Assembly (NCBI GenBank): GCA_027062365.1
Contig: JAMOTK010000040.1
Coordinates: 1-33,761, forward strand
Origin: Sulfurovum sp.
GTDB lineage: Bacteria > Campylobacterota > Campylobacteria > Campylobacterales > Sulfurovaceae
Direction: 5' to 3'
DNA: 33,761 bases
Part shown: in pieces, positions 1,180 to 31,660 of the stretch
Position numbering within the stretch: the first letter of the stretch is position 1
How the letters are laid out: each line of letters starts with the position of its first letter
Program-made: the position numbers and the translations under genes
Notes under the pieces: generated by a model
What the model was told of the DNA's origin: nothing
What the model saw: only the letters and a program-made list of their open reading frames with translations
Databases searched by the model: none

Positions 1180-1197
1180 AAAGAGTATCTACTCTTT
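1180..1197. repeat. Short perfect inverted repeat between two gene fragments
   Basis: AAAGAGTA and TACTCTTT flank a two-base centre. The palindrome covers the stop codon of the AAA-like fragment and lies just upstream of the VIT fragment. It lacks a clean T-run in either direction, so calling it a terminator would be weak. Confidence 0.35.
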
Positions 1198-1503
1198 ATT
1201 GTAGCCAAAAATGAAAGAAGTTGATATGATAATATCAAGAAATGAATTGTACCATTGTATCAAAGTAATATCTTCACTACCAAAAGAAGACATATCAATA
1301 TTGACACAGTTATATCCCTCTTGGGCTAATCTATGAGATGTTTGTACCCTTAGAGAGGATTTACCCACTTGTCTAGCATTGAGAATATAACAGTATTTAG
1401 ACTCTTTAAGAGATTGATAAAGTGTAGTATCTGCTTCTCTTTGGATATATGCTTTGCTCTCTATAGGAAGTGTGCCACCTACTTGATAGAAGTTATTACT
1501 CAT
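1189..1503 (-). pseudogene. AAA-like ATPase (AAA_35 type), N-terminal fragment
   Basis: The 104 residues match the N-terminus of the AAA-like domain family: FYQVGGTLPIESKAYIQRE, then YCYILNARQVGKSSLRV, which contains the P-loop core GKSS, then GYNCVNIDMSS, as in the family's strand after the P-loop. The protein loses similarity after WYNSFL and stops before any Walker B sequence, so it cannot be a complete ATPase. Its ATG overlaps the stop of the upstream PIN toxin (ATGA), so the start is probably native and the 3' part was lost. The missing middle portion of such an ATPase is found upstream, fused to a PIN N-terminus at 2152-2601. The two pieces are in the wrong order for one gene simply split by an insertion. 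Confidence 0.65.
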
Positions 1504-1907
1504 AATATAATTATCTCAACTTCTGTGATATTTTGTAATTTTTTAAATCCTTTATCAAAAGTTACTAATTGCTTAGAGATATAATATTCAGCAAAAGCTA
1601 AATGAAATACATCAAAGGAGTGTCTATAAAAATCTTTTTGCTTCATAATCTCTAAAGCCCTTTGATACACATCATTAGAGGGTTTAATAAACTTACGCAT
1701 AAAATTTAAATATTTTTCTATATCTTCTTGACTCTCTTTTTGTTTTTTTGCTATAAATGCATACTCATAGAGATTTATCTCTGATGTGATAAGCATTTTA
1801 TTCTCTATTGCATTATGTAGTAAATTGATAGACTTAGCTTGTTGCGTTTCATCATCTACTTTAGATAAAAAAGCATAAAGATAAATATTGGTATCAAAGT
1901 ATATCAT
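1500..1907 (-). CDS. PIN-domain toxin (VapC-like ribonuclease)
   Basis: This is a 135-residue PIN-domain protein, the length expected for VapC-type toxins, which cleave RNA with Mg2+ held by conserved acidic residues. Visible are the N-terminal YFDTN (first Asp), SEINLYEYAF (central Glu), HSFDVFHLAFAE and TFDKGF near the C-terminus (the later acidic cluster). The start overlaps the end of the putative antitoxin by 14 bases, the usual coupling in toxin-antitoxin pairs. All catalytic positions seem present, so the toxin may be functional. Its stop overlaps the start of the AAA-like fragment. Confidence 0.8.
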   Translation of the reverse strand: MIYFDTNIYLYAFLSKVDDETQQAKSINLLHNAIENKMLITSEINLYEYAFIAKKQKESQEDIEKYLNFMRKFIKPSNDVYQRALEIMKQKDFYRHSFDVFHLAFAEYYISKQLVTFDKGFKKLQNITEVEIIIL

Positions 1908-2133
1908 CTATCATCTCATCTGTATCTATAGCATTCTTTTTAGTAAGCATTACTTGATTATCCCCTTTTCTAACAAGAGAATAAAATTCCTTTAAAATAT
2001 CATCATCATTATTATCATTTGAATGAGGTTTTTTGATACTAATCTCTTTTATCATATCCTCTTTTAAACTCTTCAATAGATTTAAAACACTATCTATATA
2101 ATTATCATCTATTTTTAATTCTATTATTTGCAT
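1894..2133 (-). CDS. Putative antitoxin paired with the PIN toxin
   Basis: This small acidic protein of 79 residues sits directly upstream of the PIN toxin and overlaps it, the position and size of a type II antitoxin. It begins MQIIELKIDDNYIDSVLNLL, similar in style to the other antitoxin at 2602-2829 (MQKIIIKINSSIYEHIMLFL). Both look like members of an antitoxin type whose N-terminus forms a strand and helix. An Asp/Asn-rich stretch lies in the middle (residues about 39-46). No DNA-binding fold can be assigned by eye. The function rests on context. Confidence 0.6.
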   Translation of the reverse strand: MQIIELKIDDNYIDSVLNLLKSLKEDMIKEISIKKPHSNDNNDDDILKEFYSLVRKGDNQVMLTKKNAIDTDEMIDDIL

Positions 2134-2151
2134 ATTATTATCCTTTATAAA

Positions 2152-2601
2152 TTAAAATGTTTCTAGTTTCACCTTTAGACCAGTATTAAAGGGTGATTGA
2201 TTAGGATTATCAATCGCTAAACTTGCATCAGAAGAGTAAGACAAAATCATATTAAATTTTTTCCAATCTTGATTACTAGATGGTTTACTATCATTCCAAG
2301 CCCTAAGCATTCCAAAAAAATCACTAGAAACACTTTTATATTCAAACAATCTATCTGCTTCATCTATCAATAAAACAATAGGTTTATCAACAAGAGATAA
2401 AATTTTGCTCATATATTTTTCTGCTCTTCTTTTAGGAGAAAAATGAGATATTTTTTGTATAAAATTCTCTTCTAACGCTACAATAGATAGTTCATCTAAT
2501 ATATAAGCAGATACAGCTTTATATTGCTCTATAAAATCATCAATCTTTTTCTCTCCGTTTAGATAATAGATAATGATATTGGAATCTAGTAGATATTTCA
2601 T
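2152..2601 (-). pseudogene. Chimeric ORF: PIN toxin N-terminus fused to middle of an AAA-like ATPase
   Basis: The first 28-30 residues (MKYLLDSNIIIYYLNGEKK) are a typical PIN-toxin start with the first catalytic Asp. From about residue 35 the protein is instead an AAA-like ATPase segment: SPKRRAEKYMSKIL, then PIVLLIDEADRLF with a textbook Walker B DEAD-like acidic pair, DFFGMLRAWNDS and QSPFNTGLKVKLETF, after which it stops. It therefore lacks the rest of the PIN domain, and also the P-loop and C-terminus of the ATPase. The start is immediately adjacent to the stop of the upstream antitoxin, as in a normal antitoxin-PIN pair. The simplest reading is an in-frame deletion that joined a PIN gene to a following ATPase gene. 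Neither activity is expected. Confidence 0.65.
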
Positions 2602-4638: not shown

Positions 4639-5988
4639 ATGGCGAAGAAAAAAACACTTTTTGAGTGTCAATCATGTGGATTTCAATCTCCTCGATGGAT
4701 GGGGAAGTGTACCTCTTGTAATGAGTGGGAGAGTATGGTAGAGCTTAGTACAGAACAGATTAAATATCTCAAAGAAACGAGCCATTCTAGTAGGGTTGCT
4801 ACAGCGATTAAAGCCATGCCTATTACACAAATCAAAGAAGACAATGTCACACGGTTTACTTCTGGGAGTAGAGAGTTAGATTTGGTACTAGGTGGGGGTG
4901 TGGTGCCTGGGTCATTGACGCTTATTGGGGGTAGTCCTGGGGTGGGGAAATCTACGCTACTTTTGAAAATAGCAGGTAATCTAGCCAAGGTCAATAAAAA
5001 AGTCCTCTATGTCTCAGGAGAAGAGTCAGCAGGACAGATAAAGCTACGTGCCAATCGTCTTGATGCCAACCATGACAATCTTTACCTTTTACCAGAGATT
5101 AACCTCTCTACAGTTATCAATGAAATCAACCATCAATCGTATCAATTTATCATTATTGATTCTATCCAAACACTCTATAGCGAAGAGACCCCCTCAGCAC
5201 CTGGGTCGGTCACGCAAGTGCGTACCATTACCTTTGATTTGATGCGTATTGCTAAGTCTTTGCATATCCCTATCTTTATCATAGGGCATATCACCAAAGA
5301 TGGCTCGATAGCAGGGCCTAGAGTGCTAGAACACATGGTAGATACGGTACTCTATTTTGAAGGAGATACCAATTCTGAGTTACGTCTCTTACGTGGATTC
5401 AAAAATCGTTTTGGTGCGACCAATGAGGTGGGTATCTTTGAGATGAACAAAGAAGGTCTCAATGATGCCACGTCTATGGCAGGGAAATTTTTTAACAAAG
5501 AAAAACTACAATCAGGCTCTGCACTAACGGTCATTATGGAGGGTTCTCGTCCCATTATCATAGAAGTTCAAGCCCTAGTTTCAGAAGCGTATGGACATCC
5601 AAAACGCTCTTCTACAGGCTTTGACAACAATCGTTTAGGTATGTTACTCGCCCTACTTGAAAAAAAGTTAGATTTGCCTTTGGGTACGTATGATGTGTTT
5701 ATCAATGTCTCAGGAGGCATCAAAATCAATGACCCCTCTGCTGATTTGGCAATCATCGCTGCCATACTTAGTAGCTATAGAGACCGTGAATTGAGTGCTG
5801 AGAGTCTATTTTTGGGTGAAGTGAGCCTTACAGGGGAGATACGTGAAGTATCAGCACTCTCTCAACGCCTCAAAGAGATAGAAACCCAAGGATTTTTAAA
5901 AGCCGTCATCCCCAACAAACCTACAGAAAAAACCAATATCAAATGCTTTATCGCTGATGAAGTTTCTAAGGTTGTAGAGTGGATGTAA
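4639..5988 (+). CDS. radA: DNA repair protein RadA (Sms)
   Basis: RadA is a RecA-related ATPase that helps branch migration and processing of recombination intermediates. The 449-residue length is typical. The N-terminal zinc finger is CQSCG...CTSCNEW (Cys 10, 13, 24, 27). The Walker A is GGSPGVGKST (about residues 97-106), Walker B FIIIDSIQ (about 170-178), and the RadA-specific KNRFG motif is present (about 254-258). The C-terminal part is the Lon-protease-like domain (SGGIKINDPSADLAIIAA). The last 62 coding bases form one copy of a perfect 65-bp direct repeat whose second copy lies 5.6 kb downstream. The gene is therefore complete but marks the left edge of an inserted island, which separates it from acpS. 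Confidence 0.97.
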   Translation: MAKKKTLFECQSCGFQSPRWMGKCTSCNEWESMVELSTEQIKYLKETSHSSRVATAIKAMPITQIKEDNVTRFTSGSRELDLVLGGGVVPGSLTLIGGSPGVGKSTLLLKIAGNLAKVNKKVLYVSGEESAGQIKLRANRLDANHDNLYLLPEINLSTVINEINHQSYQFIIIDSIQTLYSEETPSAPGSVTQVRTITFDLMRIAKSLHIPIFIIGHITKDGSIAGPRVLEHMVDTVLYFEGDTNSELRLLRGFKNRFGATNEVGIFEMNKEGLNDATSMAGKFFNKEKLQSGSALTVIMEGSRPIIIEVQALVSEAYGHPKRSSTGFDNNRLGMLLALLEKKLDLPLGTYDVFINVSGGIKINDPSADLAIIAAILSSYRDRELSAESLFLGEVSLTGEIREVSALSQRLKEIETQGFLKAVIPNKPTEKTNIKCFIADEVSKVVEWM

Positions 5989-5991
5989 AAT
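5927..5991 (+). repeat. 65-bp direct repeat, left copy (radA 3' end)
   Basis: Bases 5927-5991 are identical to 11585-11649. The repeat covers the last 20 codons and stop of radA plus three bases. It behaves like an attachment-site or target duplication: insertion at the 3' end leaves radA intact. Confidence 0.9.
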
Positions 5992-6126
5992 GATGAGGGG
6001 ATTAATATCATATTAAAATATACGATAATTCTCTCCAAAATATAGCTTATTTCAAGTATTTTAGTCTGTTTTTGAGGTATTTTTTATAGGGTACTGAATG
6101 GTTACAAAACTTTTAACTAGACGAAA

Positions 6127-6990
6127 CTAATTTAATTTTTCAAACATATCTATTAAATCCTTTTTCAATTCGTCTTTCAATTCTTCTGGTTCTAGGATTG
6201 TTAAATAAGGTAACCATTGTTTAATCAATGGTAAAACTTCTTTAGCTTGTGTATATTTCACAGTAATTTTAATGCTACCATCTTTCTCTTTATTTTTAAA
6301 TTTATGAGATTTCATAAGGATTTCCATATTTTCATCAAAATATTTTGAGATTGATGGTTCGGCTAATAAGACAGCCTCTCTTTGCTCTACACCATATAAT
6401 GAAAATTCATTTTGAAACTTATTTATTTGAAATTCTTTATATTTTTCAACAGACTTCTCTTCAAATTTCTTCTCTTTAATTTCTATATCTATAATATTAT
6501 TAATTAAGCTATACTCTAACTTACTCTCATGTATATATAAAACCCACCAATTATTATTGACAGATTCTAATCCAATAGCTTTAATATCTTTTATCCAAAC
6601 CTCATTATCAAATTGTATATCACAAAAATAGTTATTTTTTATAATAGTAGATATTTCATTTCCTCTTTCACTAAGACTAAAAAGTGAAGAATATTCTTTT
6701 AATACATTTTCCATCTCATTGATAGTAGTAATAGCATCTTCAATAAGTCTATATTCGACTTTATTACTTCGACCTACTTTTATATTCTTATCAACTTTTT
6801 CAATAAATTTTTCATCTTCCATTTTACTAAACAATGTTTTAATATTTCTACTGCTTTGTTTACATTTCTCTAAAATTTTAATATTATCAGCACTAATTGT
6901 TTTATCTTTCGCTCTCTGAAATTCATGAATAATATATAAAAAACATTTATAGTTTAAATTTTTAGATTTTTCCAATTTATTTTTCCTCAA
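6127..6990 (-). CDS. WYL-domain transcriptional regulator
   Basis: This 287-residue protein has an N-terminal helical region that fits a winged helix-turn-helix (residues about 10-80), a WYL-like core (NNWWVLYIHESKLEYSLINNI, about 145-165), and a C-terminal WCX-like end (EVLPLIKQWLPYLTILEPEELKDEL). WYL regulators bind nucleic acid ligands and often control phage-defence operons (BrxR and CapW are examples). It is the last gene of the leftward island operon. A perfect 13-bp inverted repeat (7001-7034) sits just upstream and may be its operator. The coordinate 6990 uses a TTG; a second TTG at 6975 has a better placed GAGGA and may be the true start. The typical WYL tripeptide is only approximated here (WVL). 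Confidence 0.7.
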   Translation of the reverse strand: MRKNKLEKSKNLNYKCFLYIIHEFQRAKDKTISADNIKILEKCKQSSRNIKTLFSKMEDEKFIEKVDKNIKVGRSNKVEYRLIEDAITTINEMENVLKEYSSLFSLSERGNEISTIIKNNYFCDIQFDNEVWIKDIKAIGLESVNNNWWVLYIHESKLEYSLINNIIDIEIKEKKFEEKSVEKYKEFQINKFQNEFSLYGVEQREAVLLAEPSISKYFDENMEILMKSHKFKNKEKDGSIKITVKYTQAKEVLPLIKQWLPYLTILEPEELKDELKKDLIDMFEKLN

Positions 6991-7000
6991 TCATTTATTT

Positions 7001-7034
7001 AAAGTAAATTAACTTGAATGCGTTAATTTACTTT
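7001..7034. promoter_or_regulatory. Perfect 13-bp inverted repeat before the WYL regulator
   Basis: AAAGTAAATTAAC (7001-7013) and GTTAATTTACTTT (7022-7034) are exact reverse complements around an 8-base centre. It fills most of the 50-base gap between the 98-residue protein gene and the WYL gene. On the transcribed strand it is followed by A-rich rather than T-rich sequence, so an operator or an RNA stem for attenuation is more likely than a simple terminator. Confidence 0.5.
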
Positions 7035-7040
7035 TAGGTT

Positions 7041-7337
7041 TTAAATTTGTTTTAACAAACTATTTAATTTATCAATATTTTTGTTGATAACATCTCGTTT
7101 AGTATAAAGATTTTTTATTTTTTTAGGTGTTAAGTTTCTTTCAGAAGCCTGATTATAACTTAAACTCCATTTATTTTTAAACTGCTCTTTTGCTTCATAT
7201 ATTCTAGCCTTTTTTTGTGCTTTTAATTTTTCTCTTTGTGCATCTCCATCATCAGACCTTCTTCTCTTCGGTTTATCATCACTTAATATCGCTCCTGCTA
7301 CTGCAACTGCTGCTGCTCCTATTAACCATGGTAACAT
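7041..7337 (-). CDS. Small one-helix membrane protein of the GTPase operon
   Basis: This 98-residue protein has an N-terminal hydrophobic helix (about residues 2-18, LPWLIGAAAVAVAGAIL), then a very basic patch (KPKRRR) and a charged, probably helical tail (residues 30-98). The helix lacks a cleavage motif, so it is probably a membrane anchor with the charged tail in the cytoplasm. It is 11 bases downstream of the smallest GTPase and clearly in the same operon. I do not recognise a named family. A plausible role is membrane recruitment of the dynamin-like proteins, inferred from topology and position only. Confidence 0.6.
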   Translation of the reverse strand: MLPWLIGAAAVAVAGAILSDDKPKRRRSDDGDAQREKLKAQKKARIYEAKEQFKNKWSLSYNQASERNLTPKKIKNLYTKRDVINKNIDKLNSLLKQI

Positions 7338-7348
7338 ATTATTTCCTT

Positions 7349-8092
7349 TTAAAATAAATTTTTGATATTTTGGATATCACTATCAAGCTCTTTTTTTAGA
7401 GTTGTTATCTCTTGATTAACTCTATCTTTTTTTTCATACAGTTTATCTTTTTGAGTTCTAATTTCTTGTTTTATTACTCTTTTTTTCTTCTCTATCTCTT
7501 TATCTCTATTTTCAAGAAAACTTTTTTGCTCTTTTATAATCAAACGATTAAGCTCTTCAATATTACTCTTTTGTTGAATATTATGATTTGCATGTTTTGC
7601 TCTAGTAGAGGATACAGCGATAATACTCATAGGCTTAATAGCAAAGTTTAATTGATTTCTTATCTTTATTCTTATTTCATCAATATCTTTTACTTGATCT
7701 ATTTGTGTTAAAATAATAGCAATATTTTGATTAAATTTATATCTATCTTTTAGAAATTCTCTCTCTTTATTATCTAACTCACCTTCTGCTACACTATGTA
7801 CAAAAAGCAAACAATCTGACTCTGTTAATATTTTATGAGCTTCATCATCATCTCCTCTTCTTATATCAGCATCAAGACCTGGAGTATCTATCCAAGTAAT
7901 ATTATTAGAATTAAATCTTTTTATCTCTACCGTTTCTCTAATATCAGCGACTTTAAATATATCCTTATGTACTAACACATTTAACAAAGAACTCTTCCCA
8001 TGGTTATATTTACCATAGACAGCAACTTGAAGTGTATTAGGACGGTTTTTAAATTTATTTAAATCTACTATGAGATTATTTACCTTATTCAT
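7349..8092 (-). CDS. Small dynamin-like GTPase with C-terminal coiled coil
   Basis: This 247-residue GTPase has G1 YGKYNHGKSS (about residues 25-34), a G2 threonine in RETV, G3 DTPG (about 68-71), G4 as TQID instead of the usual N/TKxD, and a G5-like AVSST. After the G domain, residues about 175-247 are almost entirely charged and heptad-like (KEIEKKKRVIKQEIRT), so a long coiled coil is likely. It is much shorter than a full dynamin and lacks an obvious membrane paddle, so it may work with the two larger GTPases encoded just upstream. The gap to the previous gene is 10 bases. LeoB/LeoC-type proteins are the nearest named idea, not demonstrated. Confidence 0.75.
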   Translation of the reverse strand: MNKVNNLIVDLNKFKNRPNTLQVAVYGKYNHGKSSLLNVLVHKDIFKVADIRETVEIKRFNSNNITWIDTPGLDADIRRGDDDEAHKILTESDCLLFVHSVAEGELDNKEREFLKDRYKFNQNIAIILTQIDQVKDIDEIRIKIRNQLNFAIKPMSIIAVSSTRAKHANHNIQQKSNIEELNRLIIKEQKSFLENRDKEIEKKKRVIKQEIRTQKDKLYEKKDRVNQEITTLKKELDSDIQNIKNLF

Positions 8093-8102
8093 TTTCTTTC
8101 CT

Positions 8103-9542
8103 TTAAAAATTTATTTTATGTATTTTAATTAATGATCTCTCGAGAATATTTTTAGTATTTTTATCTCTGCTAATATCTTGATTTATCTCATCTATCTTTT
8201 CATTTAATTCATTTATAGTATTTTCAAAACTTTTTTCTATAATCTCAATAGTTTGAGCATTCATGGATGTCATTATTGTTTCTCTTATATCTTTTGTTGC
8301 TTGACTTATTTGAAGAGCTTTTAATCTTTCATTTTCATTGTGTCTATCAGTTGCTTCATCATTCATACTAAACATAGAGATAAGTGATGTAATCATTTGT
8401 GCAACTATCTTCATTGGTGGTGGCAGAGGGATAGATTCTATGATTGGTATAATCATTGCTATATCTAAATTACTTGAAGCCCCCTCATCTTCTTCAGTTA
8501 TTTCCAATATCTCTATATTCTTTTTATCAATAATAGATATTTTTTCTTTAAGTTCAGAAGATAAATAATGCTCAATATCTTGATAGAGTGTTTCTATCTC
8601 TGTGTTCACTTTATATTCTTGATTTGTTTTTAATAATGAAATAATAGTATTGAGTGTTTCAACTATTTTCATCTGAATATAATTTTTAATGTCACTTAAT
8701 AAAATAGATTTTTGAGATTCCACAAGGGTTAACTGCTCTAGTAAAATATCTAAATTACTATTCTCTAACTTAAAACTCTCAATAATAGGACGAAATAATT
8801 GCTTCTCTATTTGTGCTTTGAGTGTTTTTAAAATTTGATGTTCAGTGTTATACTCTTGAAGCCATAAATTAAATTTATCCTCAAATTGATTATAATTAGA
8901 GTGTTCTATGAGTTTACTCTTATCTGCTAATTTGCCTTTCAATGCTGTTTTTAGATTAATTGGAATTAGGTTTATTTTTTTTATTAGACTAATATCTATA
9001 TTATGCTTACTCGACTCTTTCAACATAATTTTATTTAATCTCTCAATAGATAATGCAACACTACCTTCGCCTAAAGTATCTTTTTTTAAATTCTCATAGT
9101 TAAAAACTAAAAAAATATCTTTCTCTTTTTTCAGTAATTTAAAAAGTTCTTTATAAATAGAAGCATTGTCTTCATCATCTTTTCGGATAACAAAAACAAT
9201 TAAATCACTCTTATTTAATTGTTTTTTAGTAATTTTTTCATGCTTTATAGGTGCATTAATACCAGGGGTATCTAAAAGTAGATAATCATTCCAAGTATAA
9301 GTATCAATGGTATCTGTTGTCGGAATATCTCCTATTTTCGCCTTATCTTCAGATAGAATCGTATTGATAAGTGTACTTTTACCTGCATTGTATATCCCAT
9401 AAAACATTATTTTTATATTCTTCTCTTCTAGTTTTTGTGATATTTCTTTTCTTTCTACAGAATAATTCTCTAAATTTTTCTGTAAAATATCATCAACTTT
9501 TGCTAATTCTTTTTTAATTTTACTAAACGGATTATTTTTCAT
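8103..9542 (-). CDS. Dynamin-like GTPase (middle gene of three)
   Basis: This 479-residue protein has G1 YGIYNAGKST (about residues 47-56), G2 TTDT, and G3 LDTPG (about 88-93). The G4 position FNYEN is degenerate, so base specificity may be altered. The region after the G domain is long and helical (about 230-350). A hydrophobic, proline-containing stretch follows (about 360-392, LDIAMIIPIIESIPLPPPMK...) that could act as a membrane-binding paddle, and a last helical segment returns to the G domain as in bacterial dynamins. Its start overlaps the end of the upstream GTPase by 11 bases. The architecture fits bacterial dynamin-like proteins that remodel or tether membranes. Confidence 0.8.
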   Translation of the reverse strand: MKNNPFSKIKKELAKVDDILQKNLENYSVERKEISQKLEEKNIKIMFYGIYNAGKSTLINTILSEDKAKIGDIPTTDTIDTYTWNDYLLLDTPGINAPIKHEKITKKQLNKSDLIVFVIRKDDEDNASIYKELFKLLKKEKDIFLVFNYENLKKDTLGEGSVALSIERLNKIMLKESSKHNIDISLIKKINLIPINLKTALKGKLADKSKLIEHSNYNQFEDKFNLWLQEYNTEHQILKTLKAQIEKQLFRPIIESFKLENSNLDILLEQLTLVESQKSILLSDIKNYIQMKIVETLNTIISLLKTNQEYKVNTEIETLYQDIEHYLSSELKEKISIIDKKNIEILEITEEDEGASSNLDIAMIIPIIESIPLPPPMKIVAQMITSLISMFSMNDEATDRHNENERLKALQISQATKDIRETIMTSMNAQTIEIIEKSFENTINELNEKIDEINQDISRDKNTKNILERSLIKIHKINF

Positions 9543-11127
9543 TGTTTAATTCCTTAATTTTATTTTTAAATTCTGTTATCTCTTTATTCATATCATCTAT
9601 ATTCTCAATAATATTATTTATAGATGTATCAAAACTTGTGAATATCCCTTGAATTGAATCTGTGATTTCAAGTTTTATATTCTCTTGAAGTGATGCAATC
9701 ACATCACTACTATCTACTCCTATTTTTTCACGGTGTGTAGAACTAGATTCTCTATCACTCCAATCAAAAGTAATAATTTTTGTAAACAACCCTCTTTTAG
9801 CACCTTTCTCTCTATAAGTTACTTCTATATCTTTATAGGCTTGAATATCATTTGCATTGATTTTAATAGCTATATCTTTAATATTATCAAACAAGTATTT
9901 TAATATCTTTTCTATTTCATTAGCCAGTATCTTATCTATATAGGTAGACAATTCTTCAACTAATTTATTAATATTTTTATTGTTCTCATACTTATGAACT
10001 AATGTAGATATTCTTAGGTTAGTATTACTAATGATAGTATTTAGTAAAATACTTTTTTTTATTTTTAAGTCTTCTTTTTGTTTTAAAAGTACACTTTTTA
10101 ATGTATCTATTTCAGGAAGTAATTTTTTATCTATATTTTCAATAATTTCAATTTCAAAATATTTCTTTAAAATCTTTTTAGGTTTTTGACTTTTATATTC
10201 TATACTTTTATATAAAATATCACGGTTTAAAACACCAAATAGCATCTCAATATTAGATTCTTTTATCATCTTCTCTTCAGCACATTTAGTTGAAATTGAT
10301 ACAGGTTGTAAAATACTATTTTTTATACCTATACTTTCTAATGCCTCTTTTGCTCTTTTTTTTACATCTTCTTCTTGTATTTTTCTGCCTTGGTCTGTTT
10401 TTGCTTTTAATACACTTATAAAATCATCTGTTTCATCACACCAATCCTCATCATAAAAATCAGATTTTGTAATAATAGGCAAAATAATTTTTTCTTTTTT
10501 TATCTCTTTTGACAACTCTTCCAACTCTTGTGTTTGCCCTGGAGAACCTGATGAAGTAAGCCAAATAATAGCATCAGCACTGTCTAAATATTTCTTTGTT
10601 AAGTCTCCATTCTCTTTCGTCATAGAGTGTAGTCCTGGAGAATCTACTAAAATTAAATTATCAATCTCTACCCATTGTATTCTAGCCGTAGTTTCCGTTT
10701 GTCCCACTTTAAAATTTTTATCACTATTTGATTTAACTTTTCCATCAATATCTAAATAAAATATCTCGGGTTGTTTATTTGATAATTCTACAAATAAATT
10801 AGAAAAACTACTTTTACCTGCATTGACTTTACCAAAAATAAAAAATATAAGTTTATCTCCAAAATTTTTAGAGAGTTCTTCTGATAATTCAAAGTTACTC
10901 CACTCTTTATTTATCTTTTGAATCAAACTACTAAGGACAATATTAGTAGTCTCTATATGTTTTGATAAAGGATTGTCTTTAGCAACTTTCCCATTTTGAA
11001 TATTATTTTGAATAATATTCAAAAATTCATTAGTTAACTCCTTACCCTTCTCTCCCTGTGCTATAGATGACTTTAATTCATCTCCAAATTTTTCTATTTT
11101 ATTAAAAAATTCTTTAGTATTTTTCAT
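9532..11127 (-). CDS. Dynamin-like GTPase (first and largest of three)
   Basis: This 531-residue protein has an N-terminal helical segment (1-90). The G domain shows G1 FGKVNAGKSS (about 98-107), G2 QTETTA, G3 VDSPG (about 158-162) and G4 ITKSD (about 218-222). A long helical region follows (about 310-420), then a Ser/Arg-rich loop (TFDWSDRESSSTHREK) and a final helical bundle. Length and layout are those of a bacterial dynamin-like protein. It lies 8 bases after the small protein at 11136-11396 and overlaps the next GTPase, so three different GTPases are made from one transcript. The set recalls LeoA/LeoB/LeoC (Eleos). No orthology can be claimed without alignment. Confidence 0.8.
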   Translation of the reverse strand: MKNTKEFFNKIEKFGDELKSSIAQGEKGKELTNEFLNIIQNNIQNGKVAKDNPLSKHIETTNIVLSSLIQKINKEWSNFELSEELSKNFGDKLIFFIFGKVNAGKSSFSNLFVELSNKQPEIFYLDIDGKVKSNSDKNFKVGQTETTARIQWVEIDNLILVDSPGLHSMTKENGDLTKKYLDSADAIIWLTSSGSPGQTQELEELSKEIKKEKIILPIITKSDFYDEDWCDETDDFISVLKAKTDQGRKIQEEDVKKRAKEALESIGIKNSILQPVSISTKCAEEKMIKESNIEMLFGVLNRDILYKSIEYKSQKPKKILKKYFEIEIIENIDKKLLPEIDTLKSVLLKQKEDLKIKKSILLNTIISNTNLRISTLVHKYENNKNINKLVEELSTYIDKILANEIEKILKYLFDNIKDIAIKINANDIQAYKDIEVTYREKGAKRGLFTKIITFDWSDRESSSTHREKIGVDSSDVIASLQENIKLEITDSIQGIFTSFDTSINNIIENIDDMNKEITEFKNKIKELNNEK

Positions 11128-11135
11128 GTTTTTCC

Positions 11136-11396
11136 TTATCGTACAATTTTCATTGATTTGTTGAATTGTTTTTTTCTTGGCTGAATATAGGTAGTTACTA
11201 AAATAGGGGATAATCTATCGGTTAAAGCAAATATATAAATAAAGTTGTGATATAAAACTTTAAATTGTCTAACTCCTTCTCTTGATAATAACTCTCCTTT
11301 TTTTAAAACAGATGCTATATGTCGTAAATGTGAACGCTTTGCTAAACCCAATCTCTCTTTCAATCGTCTCTTACCATGCTTTGTAATTATTGTCAT
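11136..11396 (-). CDS. Small basic protein, first gene of the GTPase operon
   Basis: This 86-residue, strongly basic protein begins MTIITKHGKRRLKERLGL and has a mid region FKVLYHNFIYIF followed by PILVTTYIQP. The pattern (T-K-H-G-x-x-R-x-x-x-R-x-G-L, then a strand ending in an iyiF...LVT block) is found in small proteins of phages and mobile elements and looks distantly like a RelE/DUF4258-type fold; this is a resemblance only. It has AAGGA before its ATG and the extended -10 promoter at 11428-11436. It could be a nuclease-like or RNA-binding partner of the GTPases, or an independent passenger. Confidence 0.55.
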   Translation of the reverse strand: MTIITKHGKRRLKERLGLAKRSHLRHIASVLKKGELLSREGVRQFKVLYHNFIYIFALTDRLSPILVTTYIQPRKKQFNKSMKIVR

Positions 11397-11427
11397 AATG
11401 TTCCTTTCTAATTTTTATTTCAGCAGA

Positions 11428-11436
11428 AGTATAACA
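11428..11436 (-). promoter_or_regulatory. Extended -10 promoter (TGTTATACT) of the three-GTPase operon
   Basis: On the minus strand TGT-TATACT lies 31 bases before the ATG at 11396, with AAGGA between. The tandem repeats at 11466-11558 lie directly upstream, at about -45 to -137 from the expected transcription start. Confidence 0.55.
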
Positions 11437-11465
11437 CACATAAGATAAAAGTAATCTTTAATAAA

Positions 11466-11558
11466 TTGACATTGGCAATGTGTATTTATAAATTAATTGA
11501 CATTGGCAATGTGTATTTATAAATTAATTGACATTGGCAATGTGTATTTATAAATACG
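11466..11558. repeat. Three 31-bp tandem repeats, each with a 13-bp palindrome
   Basis: Units begin at 11466, 11497 and 11528 with an exact 31-base period. The first two are identical and the third differs only at its end. Each contains ACATTG-G-CAATGT, a palindrome around a central base, inside AT-rich spacer. The period of about three helical turns puts the palindromes on one DNA face, as expected for cooperative regulator binding. Recombinase or iteron function is the alternative. Immediately after lies a weak inverted pair AATACG (11553-11558) and CGTATT (11573-11578). Confidence 0.85.
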
Positions 11559-11584
11559 GATAAAAAACATAGCGTATTCGGAGA

Positions 11585-11649
11585 AAAAAACCAATATCAA
11601 ATGCTTTATCGCTGATGAAGTTTCTAAGGTTGTAGAGTGGATGTAAAAT
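11585..11649 (+). repeat. 65-bp direct repeat, right copy (orphan radA 3' end)
   Basis: This is an exact copy of 5927-5991 in the same orientation. It holds the last 20 codons of radA without the rest of the gene and restores the original sequence upstream of acpS. It marks the right edge of the island. Confidence 0.9.
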
Positions 11650-11682: not shown

Positions 11683-12057
11683 ATGAAAATAGGAACAGAT
11701 ATTGTACAGATACAACGCATTGAAAAATCCCTAGCCAAATATGGTGATACTTTTAAAAAACGCTTTCTTTCAGCAGAGGAAATACAAAGTGCCAAAAAGG
11801 TAGAAAGTCTCGCAGGATATTGGGCAGGAAAAGAAGCCATATCCAAAGCCTTAGGCTGTGGGATAGGGGCAAAGCTTTCTTTTCATGATATTATCATTAG
11901 CAAAAGCCCCTTGGGAGCGCCTATGTTTACCCTAAGTACCAAAGCCCAAAAGATACATCAAATCACTGAGAGTTCTCTCTCTATTAGCCATGATGGTGGT
12001 TTTGCCATTGCCGTAGCTGTCATCAATTCATTTATACCCAAGGAATCTAATCTATGA
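11683..12057 (+). CDS. acpS: Holo-[acyl-carrier-protein] synthase
   Basis: AcpS transfers 4'-phosphopantetheine from coenzyme A to acyl carrier protein in fatty acid synthesis. The 124-residue length is typical. Diagnostic motifs are IGTDIVQIQRIEK at the N-terminus (Mg2+-binding Asp), GYWAGKEAISKALG (family block FxxKEAxxKAxG) and the C-terminal LSISHDGGFAIAVAV. The start has no visible Shine-Dalgarno and follows an extended -10 by seven bases, so it may be leaderless. Its stop overlaps the ATG of the next gene (ATGA). The gene probably followed radA directly before the island arrived. Confidence 0.95.
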   Translation: MKIGTDIVQIQRIEKSLAKYGDTFKKRFLSAEEIQSAKKVESLAGYWAGKEAISKALGCGIGAKLSFHDIIISKSPLGAPMFTLSTKAQKIHQITESSLSISHDGGFAIAVAVINSFIPKESNL

Positions 12058-29097: not shown

Positions 29098-30204
29098 ATG
29101 CATAGTTTTTTTACTAAAGTATTAGCTGCTATAAACCCAAATGAGAACTTAGATTTAAAAAAGGTTTCACAAAAGTGGGAACAACAATTACCAACTTTAT
29201 GGCTACTTGGTAAAACAGGTGCAGGGAAATCATCTATCATACAAGCACTAACCAATAACTCTTTGGTTGAAATAGGCAACGGTTTTAGCCCTTGTACTAA
29301 AACTTCAAAGCATTATGATTATCCTTTAAATGAACCCATATTAAGATTTTTAGACACAAGAGGATTATCTGAAATAGAGTATGACCCAAGTGAAGATATT
29401 GAAATGTGTCAACACAACAGTCATGCTGTAATCATTGTTATGAAAGCCGATGAAGTAGAGCAAAGTGATGTTCTTGATGCACTCAAAAAAATCAAACAAA
29501 TAGGTGGGATTCAACACCTACTCGTAGTGCATAACACTATATTCTCTATGTCAGATGAGGAAAGCACTAAATCCATAAGGTATAATCAACATCAAGTTGA
29601 AAATGTTTGGGCTAGTAAAATTGATTTTGTTAGTGTAAATCTGTCATCTGAAAATAGAGTAGGAGTCAATGATTTAATCAAAGCCATTACTAAAGTGCTT
29701 CCCTTTTTGAGTATCATCATGGACGATAAAGAACATACTTCTAGTGAAGAGCAGAACTTTAACAAACTCCGTACAGAGATAATTTGGTATGCAGGGTCAG
29801 CAGGGGCTAGTGATTTACTTCCTGCTATTGGCTTAGTTTCAGTTCCTGCTATTCAGGGCAAAATGTTACATAGTCTAGCAAATCAGTACGGTATAGAATG
29901 GAACAAACAAACATTTATGGAGTTCCTAGGACTACTAGGAAGCAGTTTTGCGCTAAAGTACTCTGCCAAGTTTGCCATTCGTGAATTGGTAAAATTTGTA
30001 CCCGTTTATGGTCAAACGGTAGGCTCTGCTACGGCTGGAGTGATTAGCTCTGCTTCTACGTATGCCATAGGAAGAGTAGCGTGTAAATACCTATACCATA
30101 AAAGTAAAGGGGAGCCAGTATCTACAAAAGAGATGACCAAGCTCTATAAAGAAGCATTAACAAAAGGTACAAAGGTGGCAAAAAATGAAGCAGATAAAAA
30201 ATAG
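29098..30204 (+). CDS. GTPase with C-terminal DUF697 (YcjF-like) membrane domain
   Basis: This 368-residue protein has a G domain with G1 LGKTGAGKSSIIQAL (about 36-50) and G3 LDTRGLSE (about 84-91). The G4 position HNTI is degenerate. After about residue 235 a DUF697-like region begins (WYAGSAGASDLLPAIGLVSVP) with further alternating hydrophobic helices (GLLGSSFALKYSAKFAIRE, YGQTVGSATAGVISSASTYAIG) that probably insert in or lie on the membrane. It is not one of the dynamin-like GTPases in the radA island; those lack this C-terminus. Its end overlaps the next GTPase gene by 20 bases, indicating a partner protein. Confidence 0.75.
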   Translation: MHSFFTKVLAAINPNENLDLKKVSQKWEQQLPTLWLLGKTGAGKSSIIQALTNNSLVEIGNGFSPCTKTSKHYDYPLNEPILRFLDTRGLSEIEYDPSEDIEMCQHNSHAVIIVMKADEVEQSDVLDALKKIKQIGGIQHLLVVHNTIFSMSDEESTKSIRYNQHQVENVWASKIDFVSVNLSSENRVGVNDLIKAITKVLPFLSIIMDDKEHTSSEEQNFNKLRTEIIWYAGSAGASDLLPAIGLVSVPAIQGKMLHSLANQYGIEWNKQTFMEFLGLLGSSFALKYSAKFAIRELVKFVPVYGQTVGSATAGVISSASTYAIGRVACKYLYHKSKGEPVSTKEMTKLYKEALTKGTKVAKNEADKK

Positions 30205-31660
30205 TTTTAACCTTTTGGCAAAATTATCAAATAACTTTACTCTTTTATTGAGTCTGGCAATAACTATTCCTATTGTATTTCTTTGTTGTTTGGGTGGTTG
30301 GTTTATTTTTGTTAAGGGGTATATGCTCTATTTTTTACTGCTACTTATGGTTTTGTCTTTGCTAGTCTATTTTACATCTACACTAAAAAAACACCCTACC
30401 CGTGTAGAAAATAAAGAAGTCAAAGATGATATACACATAAAAAAATCCCCTCAATGGTCTAGCTTCGATGAAAATGTTTATGCTAATTTAGAAGCGTTAA
30501 TTGATGAAAAGTTAAATCACAACATAGAGTGGGAAGCACTTCAAATGCACTCTCTTGACATCATCTCCAAAACAGCACAAAAATACTACCCAAACAATAG
30601 TGAAAAAGAGTTAGCCTTTAGCGTCTCAGAGTTTCTCTTCGCAGTAGAAGAGGTAAGTAGCCGCTATAGAGGCTACATAAAAGAGTATATTCCGTTTGAA
30701 GATAGGATTAAAGTATCACTACTTAAACAAGGCTATAATCATAAAGATAAAGCAAAAATTATGGGACTAGCATATAATGTTTATAGAGCATTTAGAATGA
30801 CTAACCCTTTAGTAGGCGTGGTATCAGAGATAAGAGGACAAGTCCTCAACCAACAATTTGAAAATGTATCGACTACACTACAAAATAAAATGAAGAAAGC
30901 CCTCTTAAAAGATGTTGCTTCTGTCTCTATTGATTTGTATCGAGGGTATTTTAAAGTCAAAGATAGTGAGTTAGACAAAAGTAAAACATTTGAAGAAGAT
31001 AAATCTAATCAAGCAGAGAGCCTTGAACCATTAAGAGTAGTGGTAGTCGGACAGGTTAGTGTTGGTAAATCATCTCTAATAAATGCTATAACAGACAAGA
31101 TGGTAGCTGAAGTTAGCATAGCTCCATCTACTAATAATACGACCGTACACGAGTGTAAAGTGGAAAATATTGATGCTATTAAATTTATTGATTTAGTAGG
31201 CTTAAATGGAGATAAAGAGGTAGAAAAAGTAATACTTAAAGAGATGACAAAGAGTGACCTCATCGTATGGGTATTAAAAGCAAACCAATCTGCACGAAAA
31301 CTAGACAGTCAACTCAAAGCTCTATTTGATGAATTTTATGAAAAAGATGAAAACATAAAAAGAAAAAAACCATCTATTTTGGCAGTGCTAAACCAAGTAG
31401 ATAAACTAGAAGCCAAAGAAGAGTATAGGAAAGAATCTTCTATTATAAAAGAGGCGATAGAGTACAATAAAAAAATACTAAACCCTAATAAAATCTTAGC
31501 ACTCTCCCTAAATCCAAATGAAAAATTTTATAATATAGAAGCAGTGAAAGAGTACCTACAAGAAGCCTATGATGAGGGTATCAATACACAACTAAATAGA
31601 CGAAGAGTAGAGAACGGTCATGATAGCTTTTTTAAAAATGTCAAAAAAGTTTTTAAATAA
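30185..31660 (+). CDS. Membrane-anchored GTPase, partner of the DUF697 GTPase
   Basis: This 491-residue protein has two N-terminal transmembrane helices (about 19-42 and 45-63), then a helical region of about 215 residues, and a G domain in the C-terminal third with G1 VVGQVSVGKSSLINAI (about 286-301), a G2 threonine pair in STNNTT, G3 IDLVGLNG (DxxG, about 334) and G4 LNQVDKL. A full set of GTP-binding motifs is therefore present, unlike its upstream partner. Its start overlaps the upstream gene by 20 bases. Function unknown; a membrane-associated two-GTPase pair inserted between lysS and glyA. It converges with the metalloprotease with 10 bases between. Confidence 0.75.
   Translation: MKQIKNSFNLLAKLSNNFTLLLSLAITIPIVFLCCLGGWFIFVKGYMLYFLLLLMVLSLLVYFTSTLKKHPTRVENKEVKDDIHIKKSPQWSSFDENVYANLEALIDEKLNHNIEWEALQMHSLDIISKTAQKYYPNNSEKELAFSVSEFLFAVEEVSSRYRGYIKEYIPFEDRIKVSLLKQGYNHKDKAKIMGLAYNVYRAFRMTNPLVGVVSEIRGQVLNQQFENVSTTLQNKMKKALLKDVASVSIDLYRGYFKVKDSELDKSKTFEEDKSNQAESLEPLRVVVVGQVSVGKSSLINAITDKMVAEVSIAPSTNNTTVHECKVENIDAIKFIDLVGLNGDKEVEKVILKEMTKSDLIVWVLKANQSARKLDSQLKALFDEFYEKDENIKRKKPSILAVLNQVDKLEAKEEYRKESSIIKEAIEYNKKILNPNKILALSLNPNEKFYNIEAVKEYLQEAYDEGINTQLNRRRVENGHDSFFKNVKKVFK

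What the first reader, a model, noticed from the sequence alone, without database searches (positions are those of the whole stretch)
7041..11396. Candidate membrane-defence system: three dynamin-like GTPases in one operon
Genes of 531, 479 and 247 codons each carry G1 and G3 motifs (GKVNAGKSS, GIYNAGKST, GKYNHGKSS with DSPG or DTPG) and are packed with overlaps or gaps of 10 bases. Bacterial dynamin-like proteins occur as LeoA/LeoB/LeoC in E. coli islands, listed as the Eleos defence system, and B. subtilis DynA has been linked to phage tolerance. Here the trio is combined with two small proteins and a WYL regulator on an island, a composition I do not recognise as described.
Basis: partly seen in the sequence, partly recalled or inferred. 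Interest (0 to 1): 0.85.

Follow-up and report, generated by a model that had tools for sequence, protein, structure and literature searches.

The report
Three-dynamin membrane module on an island
A small inserted DNA island in a Sulfurovum-group bacterium carries a set of three membrane-shaping GTPases that turns out to be an uncharacterised gene system found across many bacteria, often beside antiviral genes, and it probably protects the cell membrane against phages or other damage.

Summary
Three GTPase genes (531, 479 and 247 aa) lie in one tight operon with a small membrane-anchored protein, an 86-aa protein and a WYL/WCX regulator. Two of the GTPases are predicted to have full bacterial-dynamin folds; the third is a short G domain. 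The operon fills a 5.6-kb AT-rich island (GC 25.5% against 35.5% in the flank) between radA and acpS, which are adjacent in most relatives. A perfect 65-bp copy of the radA 3' end flanks it. There is no integrase.

The trio is not private to this genome. The order short GTPase – membrane protein – dynamin 1 – dynamin 2 recurs in several phyla, and the three proteins co-evolve (mirror-tree r about 0.9). It is a sister of Eleos, not Eleos: in Campylobacter volucris a true LeoBC–LeoA pair sits beside it. Other copies lie inside a type III CRISPR locus, beside CARF nucleases or restriction systems, and on conjugative plasmids. Against a defence-only reading, pairs from the window's own subclade sit in catechol/benzoate operons.

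Best reading: a mobile membrane-surveillance system, most likely antiphage. New variant of a known kind; function untested.

The parts
4639..5988 (+). radA, the gene at whose 3' end the island is inserted (complete reading frame)
   Evidence: RadA homologues in 54 of 61 same-genus genomes
5927..5991 (+). left copy of a perfect 65-bp direct repeat = last 62 bp of radA plus 3 bp
   Evidence: the repeat finder D3, 100% identical to 11585-11649; the only two copies in the genome
6127..6990 (-). WYL/WCX-type transcriptional regulator (287 aa, TTG start), last gene of the operon
   Evidence: Pfam WCX 32.1 bits, cut-off 23.9; PADLOC WYL 1.4e-11; homologous regulators next to 7 other trio loci
7041..7337 (-). 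A4: 98-aa protein with N-terminal hydrophobic anchor (LPWLIGAAAVAVAGAIL) and charged coil; conserved small partner of the trio
   Evidence: hydropathy 2.14; A4 family between short GTPase and dynamin 1 in most loci
7349..8092 (-). A3: short dynamin-type GTPase (247 aa), G domain plus C-terminal coil
   Evidence: Pfam Dynamin_N 1.3e-13, MMR_HSR1 1.1e-12; family alignments
8103..9542 (-). A2: dynamin-like GTPase 2 (479 aa)
   Evidence: MMR_HSR1 1.1e-16, Dynamin_N 2.8e-8; AF2 pLDDT 86; Foldseek best hits are Cj-DLP1, IniA, BDLP and LeoA over the full length
9532..11127 (-). A1: dynamin-like GTPase 1 (531 aa)
   Evidence: Dynamin_N 3.9e-10; AF2 pLDDT 84; Foldseek best hits MFN1, BDLP, Cj-DLP and IniA over the full length, LeoA also listed
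11136..11396 (-). P0006: 86-aa protein of unknown function, first gene of the operon; accessory, not part of the conserved trio
   Evidence: no relative in the other trio loci; three relatives in the genus near a DNA methyltransferase, a TIR-STAND gene and tandem GTPases
11466..11555 (.). three tandem 31-bp repeats, each with the palindrome ACATTGGCAATGT (11469, 11500, 11531), upstream of the operon; candidate operator array
   Evidence: 0.11 expected by chance; the 17-bp form occurs nowhere else in the genome
11585..11649 (+). right copy of the 65-bp direct repeat
11683..12057 (+). acpS, which directly follows radA in most same-genus genomes (the empty site)
   Evidence: acpS match starts within 130 bp of radA in 25 of 29 loci

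Best explanation
A horizontally acquired membrane-surveillance module, most likely an antiphage system. A4 anchors the complex at the inner membrane. The two dynamins A1 and A2 bind GTP, pair with each other as heterotypic bacterial dynamins do, and assemble on membrane. The short GTPase A3 acts as a regulatory or capping G-domain partner. When the membrane is breached or remodelled by phage injection, assembly or lysis, they polymerise and seal or immobilise it (or, less likely, wreck it), cutting phage release. The WYL/WCX protein restrains expression through the 31-bp palindromic repeats. Shown: gene set, island, co-conservation, predicted dynamin folds, distinctness from Eleos, defence neighbours in other genomes. 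Inferred: anchoring, heteromeric assembly, trigger, outcome, operator.
For: The unit is conserved and co-evolves: all three GTPases in 45 of 69 loci, and in 34 of 43 loci with room on both sides; mirror-tree r 0.90-0.92 against shuffled maximum 0.28. Full-length dynamin folds for A1 and A2. A4 has an N-terminal hydrophobic segment. Defence neighbours in other genomes: a true Eleos pair plus WYL beside the trio in C. volucris; the trio inside a type III CRISPR locus (csm6, cas1, cas2, RAMP genes) on a Photobacterium toruni plasmid; Cmr1 and a Cas_NE0113-like frame in Mariprofundaceae; Cas_NE0113 and CARF nucleases in gammaproteobacteria; type IIG, type I and type II restriction systems. Carried on plasmids, 23 of 37 records conjugative. 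Patchy: 2 of 78 genomes of the genus. Published analogues: DynA delays phage lysis in B. subtilis (PMC8844932); Cj-DLP1/2 are inactive unless paired (PMC6104087).
Against: No phage experiment exists for this family in what could be searched. The neighbour survey had no matched background set. The window's subclade shows no strong defence neighbours and includes pairs in catechol/benzoate operons. P0001 lacks the hydrophobic tip segment seen in part of the A1 family. The gene order in the window differs from that of all relatives found, and no integrase is present, so activity in this host is not certain.
Confidence: 0.5

Rival explanations
1. A membrane-stress tolerance and repair module that is not specific for phages: it protects the inner membrane against solvents, aromatic acids, envelope antibiotics or peptides. 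It travels on islands and plasmids because it is useful, and its defence neighbours are just fellow passengers.
For: A short GTPase plus A1 pair sits between catA and catM in two Acinetobacter plasmids and in a benzoate cluster of Diaphorobacter, and these group with P0001 in one 100%-supported clade. GTPase genes in cat/ben regulons, including the catA operon of A. baylyi ADP1, were noted before (PMC6449761). DynA gathers at membrane damage sites (PMC8844932).
Against: It does not explain why the full four-gene set is embedded in a type III CRISPR locus, stands beside Eleos, and is near CARF and restriction genes. The catabolic pairs lack A2 and A4, so they may be derived.
Confidence: 0.28
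2. It is simply Eleos (LeoA/LeoBC) or the catalogued 'Dynamins' defence type under a loose definition.
For: PADLOC LeoA and LeoBC profiles match all three families significantly (about 30-104 bits), so annotation tools may call it Eleos; one survey merges Dynamins and Eleos (PMC11811056).
Against: True LeoBC and LeoA score 432 and 503 bits with those models, and at most 40 bits with the trio's own profiles, where trio members score about 200-540. Both systems stand side by side in C. volucris. Gene number, sizes and order differ.
Confidence: 0.14
3. An abortive-infection variant: on activation the dynamins and the hydrophobic A4 permeabilise the membrane and kill the cell, and the WYL protein keeps them off.
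For: The WYL/WCX gene and repeat array suggest tight control; in Bacillota A4 is paired with radical SAM maturases.
Against: The nearest tested bacterial dynamin, DynA, stabilises membranes and delays lysis (PMC8844932). No toxin-like domain was found.
Confidence: 0.2
4. Housekeeping GTPases (ribosome assembly, division) that happen to be clustered.
For: Weak matches to Der, Era and YlqF models through the shared G domain.
Against: All such matches except a generic small_GTP domain hit lie far below curated cut-offs. Only 2 of 78 genomes of the genus carry the A1 gene.
Confidence: 0.02

Closest known systems
Eleos / LeoA-LeoB-LeoC (E. coli ETEC H10407; LeoBC-LeoA elsewhere)
   Same: tandem dynamin-like GTPases in one operon on islands; distant sequence kinship; LeoA-like full-length fold (4aur among Foldseek hits of both models)
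   Different: Leo is one LeoA plus one LeoBC dynamin (split into LeoC 206 aa and LeoB 572 aa in ETEC, PMC4159319). The trio has two full-size dynamins, a separate short GTPase and a small membrane protein. Profiles separate them cleanly, and both occur side by side in C. volucris.
Campylobacter jejuni Cj-DLP1/Cj-DLP2 (Cj0411/Cj0412)
   Same: paired bacterial dynamins in an operon; Cj-DLP1 is the top Foldseek hit of A2
   Different: larger (84.5 and 71.2 kDa), with an N-terminal assembly domain in Cj-DLP1 and no third GTPase (PMC6104087)
B. subtilis DynA
   Same: bacterial dynamin with two G domains; membrane repair and delay of phage lysis (PMC8844932)
   Different: one fused chromosomal protein, without the short GTPase, A4 or an island
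GTPase pairs in cat/ben operons (A. baylyi ADP1, Burkholderia glumae and others; PMC6449761)
   Same: the pairs seen here in Acinetobacter and Diaphorobacter plasmids are A3 + A1 homologues and group with P0001
   Different: no A2, no A4, catabolic context, no described function; the published ADP1 and B. glumae pairs were not compared here

Membership tests
Eleos (LeoA + LeoBC) | a protein that belongs to the LeoA family rather than a sister family | tested here: not met
   trio proteins 38-104 bits where they match the LeoA model, true LeoA 503 bits; true LeoA at most 40 bits with trio profiles
Eleos (LeoA + LeoBC) | a LeoBC dynamin, whole or split into LeoB and LeoC | tested here: not met
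   at most 95 bits for trio proteins against 432 for true LeoBC
Eleos (LeoA + LeoBC) | protects against phages | not testable with these tools
   needs an experiment
Bacterial dynamin-like proteins | dynamin-type G domain with G1 and G3 motifs | tested here: met
   the P-loop GKS and DxPG columns are invariant in all three family alignments
Bacterial dynamin-like proteins | long helical neck and trunk around the G domain (A1, A2) | tested here: met
   AF2 pLDDT 84 and 86; Foldseek and VIA-align matches to BDLP, mitofusin and Cj-DLP over the whole length
Bacterial dynamin-like proteins | long helical neck and trunk (A3, 247 aa) | tested here: not met
   sequence length leaves only about 60 residues after the G domain; structure not predicted
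Bacterial dynamin-like proteins | hydrophobic membrane-binding tip | tested here: inconclusive
   P0002 has a moderate hydrophobic stretch (1.42 at residue 361), P0001 none above 1; 32 of 76 A1 and 32 of 68 A2 relatives exceed 1.6
WYL-domain regulator | WYL/WCX ligand domain | tested here: met
   Pfam WCX 32.1 bits, cut-off 23.9; PADLOC WYL 1.4e-11
WYL-domain regulator | N-terminal winged helix-turn-helix | tested here: inconclusive
   only a sub-threshold HTH-like match (SgrR_N 14.7 bits, cut-off 24)
Integrase-borne genomic island | direct repeats at both ends in a gene 3' end and an empty site in relatives | tested here: met
   65/65 bp repeats; radA followed directly by acpS in most relatives
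Integrase-borne genomic island | own integrase, or repeated use of the same site | tested here: not met
   no integrase among the six genes of the island; no other family genome with a duplicated radA end except a whole-gene copy in G408; five tyrosine recombinases elsewhere in the genome

The most novel reading that the evidence does not exclude
The trio is a separate, widespread and so far unnamed antiphage system: a three-GTPase membrane machine whose small membrane adaptor A4 is, in Bacillota, a peptide-like substrate rich in Tyr/His-x-Asp/Arg motifs that a paired SPASM and B12 radical SAM enzyme modify. In some hosts it is wired to type III CRISPR signalling.
Probability: 0.3. Interest if true: 0.85.

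Novelty: new variant of a known kind. Interest (0 to 1): 0.62.

Why it matters
Bacterial dynamins mostly work as pairs, and their role in immunity rests on few examples. A conserved unit of two dynamins, a short GTPase and a membrane anchor, distinct from Eleos and present in several phyla and on conjugative plasmids, gives a compact and testable system for how membrane remodelling stops phages. Its reuse in aromatic-degradation operons allows a direct test of whether bacterial dynamin immunity is general membrane repair. The link of the anchor protein to radical SAM maturases in Bacillota would be unexpected for a dynamin system.

Tried and rejected
Housekeeping GTPases: Der/Era/YlqF matches are far below cut-offs. 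Membership in Eleos: rejected by reciprocal profile scores and by side-by-side occurrence in C. volucris. Phage or prophage origin: no relative of A1 in viral contigs or phage records, no PHROG of known function for the GTPases above weak matches. Dedicated radA-targeting element: no second case among 175 family genomes searched. Close PDB sequence relatives: A1 finds no real one by sequence, A2 and A3 find mostly generic GTPases, so folds were needed. Intrinsic terminators and promoters: consensus scans not above shuffles. E. coli: no DNA match of the Citrobacter genes. The literature held here gave no description of this gene set, but the main Eleos paper is not in the library. Cyclic permutation of the gene order (relatives A3-A1-A2 in 40 and A2-A3-A1 in 5; window A1-A2-A3) was considered as a trace of a circular form; it is only suggestive.
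Full report
WHAT IS THERE. The minus-strand operon was confirmed: P0006 (11136-11396, 86 aa), P0001/A1 (9532-11127, 531 aa), P0002/A2 (8103-9542, 479 aa), P0003/A3 (7349-8092, 247 aa), P0004/A4 (7041-7337, 98 aa) and, 50 bp on, P0005 (6127-6990, 287 aa). All reading frames are intact. All three GTPases pass the Pfam cut-offs for Dynamin_N and MMR_HSR1. P0005 passes the cut-off for the WCX domain that follows WYL domains. P0004 has one strongly hydrophobic N-terminal segment. P0006 has no confident family.

THE ISLAND. The last 62 bp of radA plus 3 bp (5927-5991) are repeated perfectly at 11585-11649, and these are the only two copies in the genome. In 25 of 29 same-genus loci examined, the acpS match starts within 130 bp of the radA stop. 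In the window acpS follows the right repeat, so 5992-11584 is an insertion. Its GC is 25.5% against 35.5% for the right flank. There is no integrase in it; the genome has five tyrosine recombinases elsewhere. No other genome of the family shows a duplicated radA end, except one with a second whole radA gene. How the island entered is therefore unknown. The perfect identity of the repeats means either a recent event or an element adapted to this species. An assembly error at a 65-bp repeat cannot be excluded without reads.

RELATIVES. In an order-wide survey of 399 genomes, only seven others had relatives of A1 at E below 1e-20, and in the genus 2 of 78 do. The second is the locus of a Sulfurovum MAG, so the window is a Sulfurovum by that grouping. 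A scan of 84,980 species gave 69 loci. Profiles for each family show all three GTPases in 45 of them, in the order A3-A1-A2 in 40 and A2-A3-A1 in 5, with A4 usually between A3 and A1. Mirror-tree correlations are 0.915, 0.906 and 0.897, against shuffled maxima of 0.12 to 0.28. The three proteins are therefore inherited as one unit. The window's order, A1-A2-A3-A4, was not seen in the relatives.

STRUCTURE. AlphaFold models of A1 and A2 (pLDDT 84 and 86) match bacterial dynamins and mitofusins over their whole length: MFN1, BDLP, Cj-DLP, IniA and LeoA at E 1e-7 to 1e-5 for A1, and Cj-DLP1, IniA, BDLP and LeoA at E 1e-9 to 1e-8 for A2. Superposition is loose (large rmsd), as expected for hinged dynamins. 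A3 has no stalk. A2's G4 motif is degenerate (NxK without a conserved aspartate) while A1 keeps T-x-S-D. The asymmetry fits a hetero-oligomer, but this is inference.

NOT ELEOS. In Campylobacter volucris the trio is followed by a 682-aa LeoBC (432 bits) and a 564-aa LeoA (503 bits), and then by a WYL gene. The trio proteins of the same locus score 30-104 bits with the LeoA and LeoBC models, and the true Leo proteins score at most 40 bits with the trio profiles. The trio is a sister system. Automated tools may still label it Eleos; this was not tested.

DEFENCE CONTEXT. On a Photobacterium toruni plasmid the whole set lies between cas1-cas2 (with csm6) and RAMP-type CRISPR genes. In a Mariprofundaceae contig it is followed by Cmr1 and a Cas_NE0113-like frame (clustered with the Marinospirillum one). 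In a Marinospirillum contig it follows a Cas_NE0113 protein and a CARF-PDDEXK nuclease, and a CARF-PDDEXK nuclease is also near the trio in another gammaproteobacterium. Type IIG and type I restriction genes lie near two other loci, and a type II restriction-modification pair lies next to an IS26-disrupted copy on a Klebsiella plasmid. Pooled PADLOC scans of flanks also returned methyltransferases, CARF, Csx1, Cas6, RtcR and WYL families. Thirty-seven plasmid records carry a relative of the dynamin, 23 of them conjugative. No matched background was run, so this is association, not enrichment.

OTHER CONTEXTS. In Bacillota, SPASM and B12 radical SAM genes accompany the trio (clusters of 18 loci each), and A4 there carries repeated motifs such as HSRYSDHSRHSRYNEYGD. 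These resemble substrates of crosslinking radical SAM enzymes; this is my inference, and no NCBIfam equivalog cut-off was reached. TerB and CxxCxxCC proteins recur in other phyla. In Acinetobacter and Diaphorobacter plasmids an A3-A1 pair without A2 and A4 lies in catechol or benzoate operons. An earlier comparative study recorded GTPase pairs in such regulons, including the catA operon of A. baylyi ADP1 (PMC6449761). In a tree of A1, P0001 groups with four gammaproteobacterial trios and these pairs (100% support) and not with the Campylobacterota trios. The window copy was therefore probably acquired from outside the phylum's main lineage, and its own subclade is not the one with the strongest defence neighbours.

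REGULATION. Three 31-bp repeats with the palindrome ACATTGGCAATGT lie about 70-160 bp upstream of the operon. They are unexpected by chance, and the 17-bp form is unique in the genome. A 31-bp period places the sites on one helical face. Binding by the WYL/WCX protein is inferred.

MECHANISM AND VERDICT. The best-supported account is a membrane-surveillance machine: A4 anchors, A1 and A2 assemble with GTP, and A3 modulates. By analogy with DynA, which clusters on membranes and delays phage lysis (PMC8844932), and with the paired Cj-DLPs (PMC6104087), it should restrict phage release or seal breached membranes. I give this 0.5, a general membrane-stress role 0.28, an abortive variant 0.2 and simple Eleos 0.14; these overlap. 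As a gene system it is not described in the libraries searched here; as a kind it is a new variant of bacterial dynamin operons.

Noticed in passing
L094:8282-13639, L113, L116, L120, L128 and other Bacillota loci: The dynamin trio is joined by a SPASM radical SAM and a B12 radical SAM gene, and the small protein A4 carries many HS(R/D)/YSD motifs, as in crosslinked RiPP precursors.
   Followed up: partly
L174:6469-9338, L175:6556-9404, L177:3469-6338: A two-gene A3-A1 version sits in catechol/benzoate operons of Acinetobacter and Diaphorobacter plasmids.
   Followed up: partly
window 11136-11396; L161:5653-5919, L162:6268-6531, L163:897-1130: The 86-aa P0006 has relatives in only three other genomes of the 120 searched, each near a different defence-like set: a DNA methyltransferase, DUF4407 and a TIR-nSTAND gene, or tandem IIGP/AIG1-like GTPases. 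It may mark defence islands.
   Followed up: partly
L178:1243-2925 and L173:466-2211: Tandem small GTPases that look alike occur after P0006 in a Sulfurovum-group genome and next to the type III CRISPR plus trio locus of Photobacterium toruni.
   Followed up: no
L033:12630-13721, L034:6483-7031, L036:6614-7714, L037:12233-13129: An HP0729-family gene (NCBIfam 437.6 bits for the L033 copy) adjoins the trio in four Campylobacterales genomes; either a hotspot or a functional partner.
   Followed up: no
window 1189-2601: Broken pieces of an AAA_35 gene interleaved with PIN-domain frames, and a short VIT-domain frame at 707-1165: a decaying low-GC stretch on the other side of radA.
   Followed up: no
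window 29098-31660: Two further adjacent GTPase-like genes (368 and 491 aa, the second with an N-terminal membrane segment) with weak matches to the A2 and A3 profiles, in the ordinary-GC flank.
   Followed up: no
L172:4620-10845 (Klebsiella plasmid): IS26 copies interrupt the trio: the A2 gene is inverted and separated from A3-A4-A1, next to a type II restriction-modification pair.
   Followed up: no
G408 contigs C21 and C41: Two identical-scoring full radA genes on two contigs of one genome, possibly an assembly duplicate.
   Followed up: no
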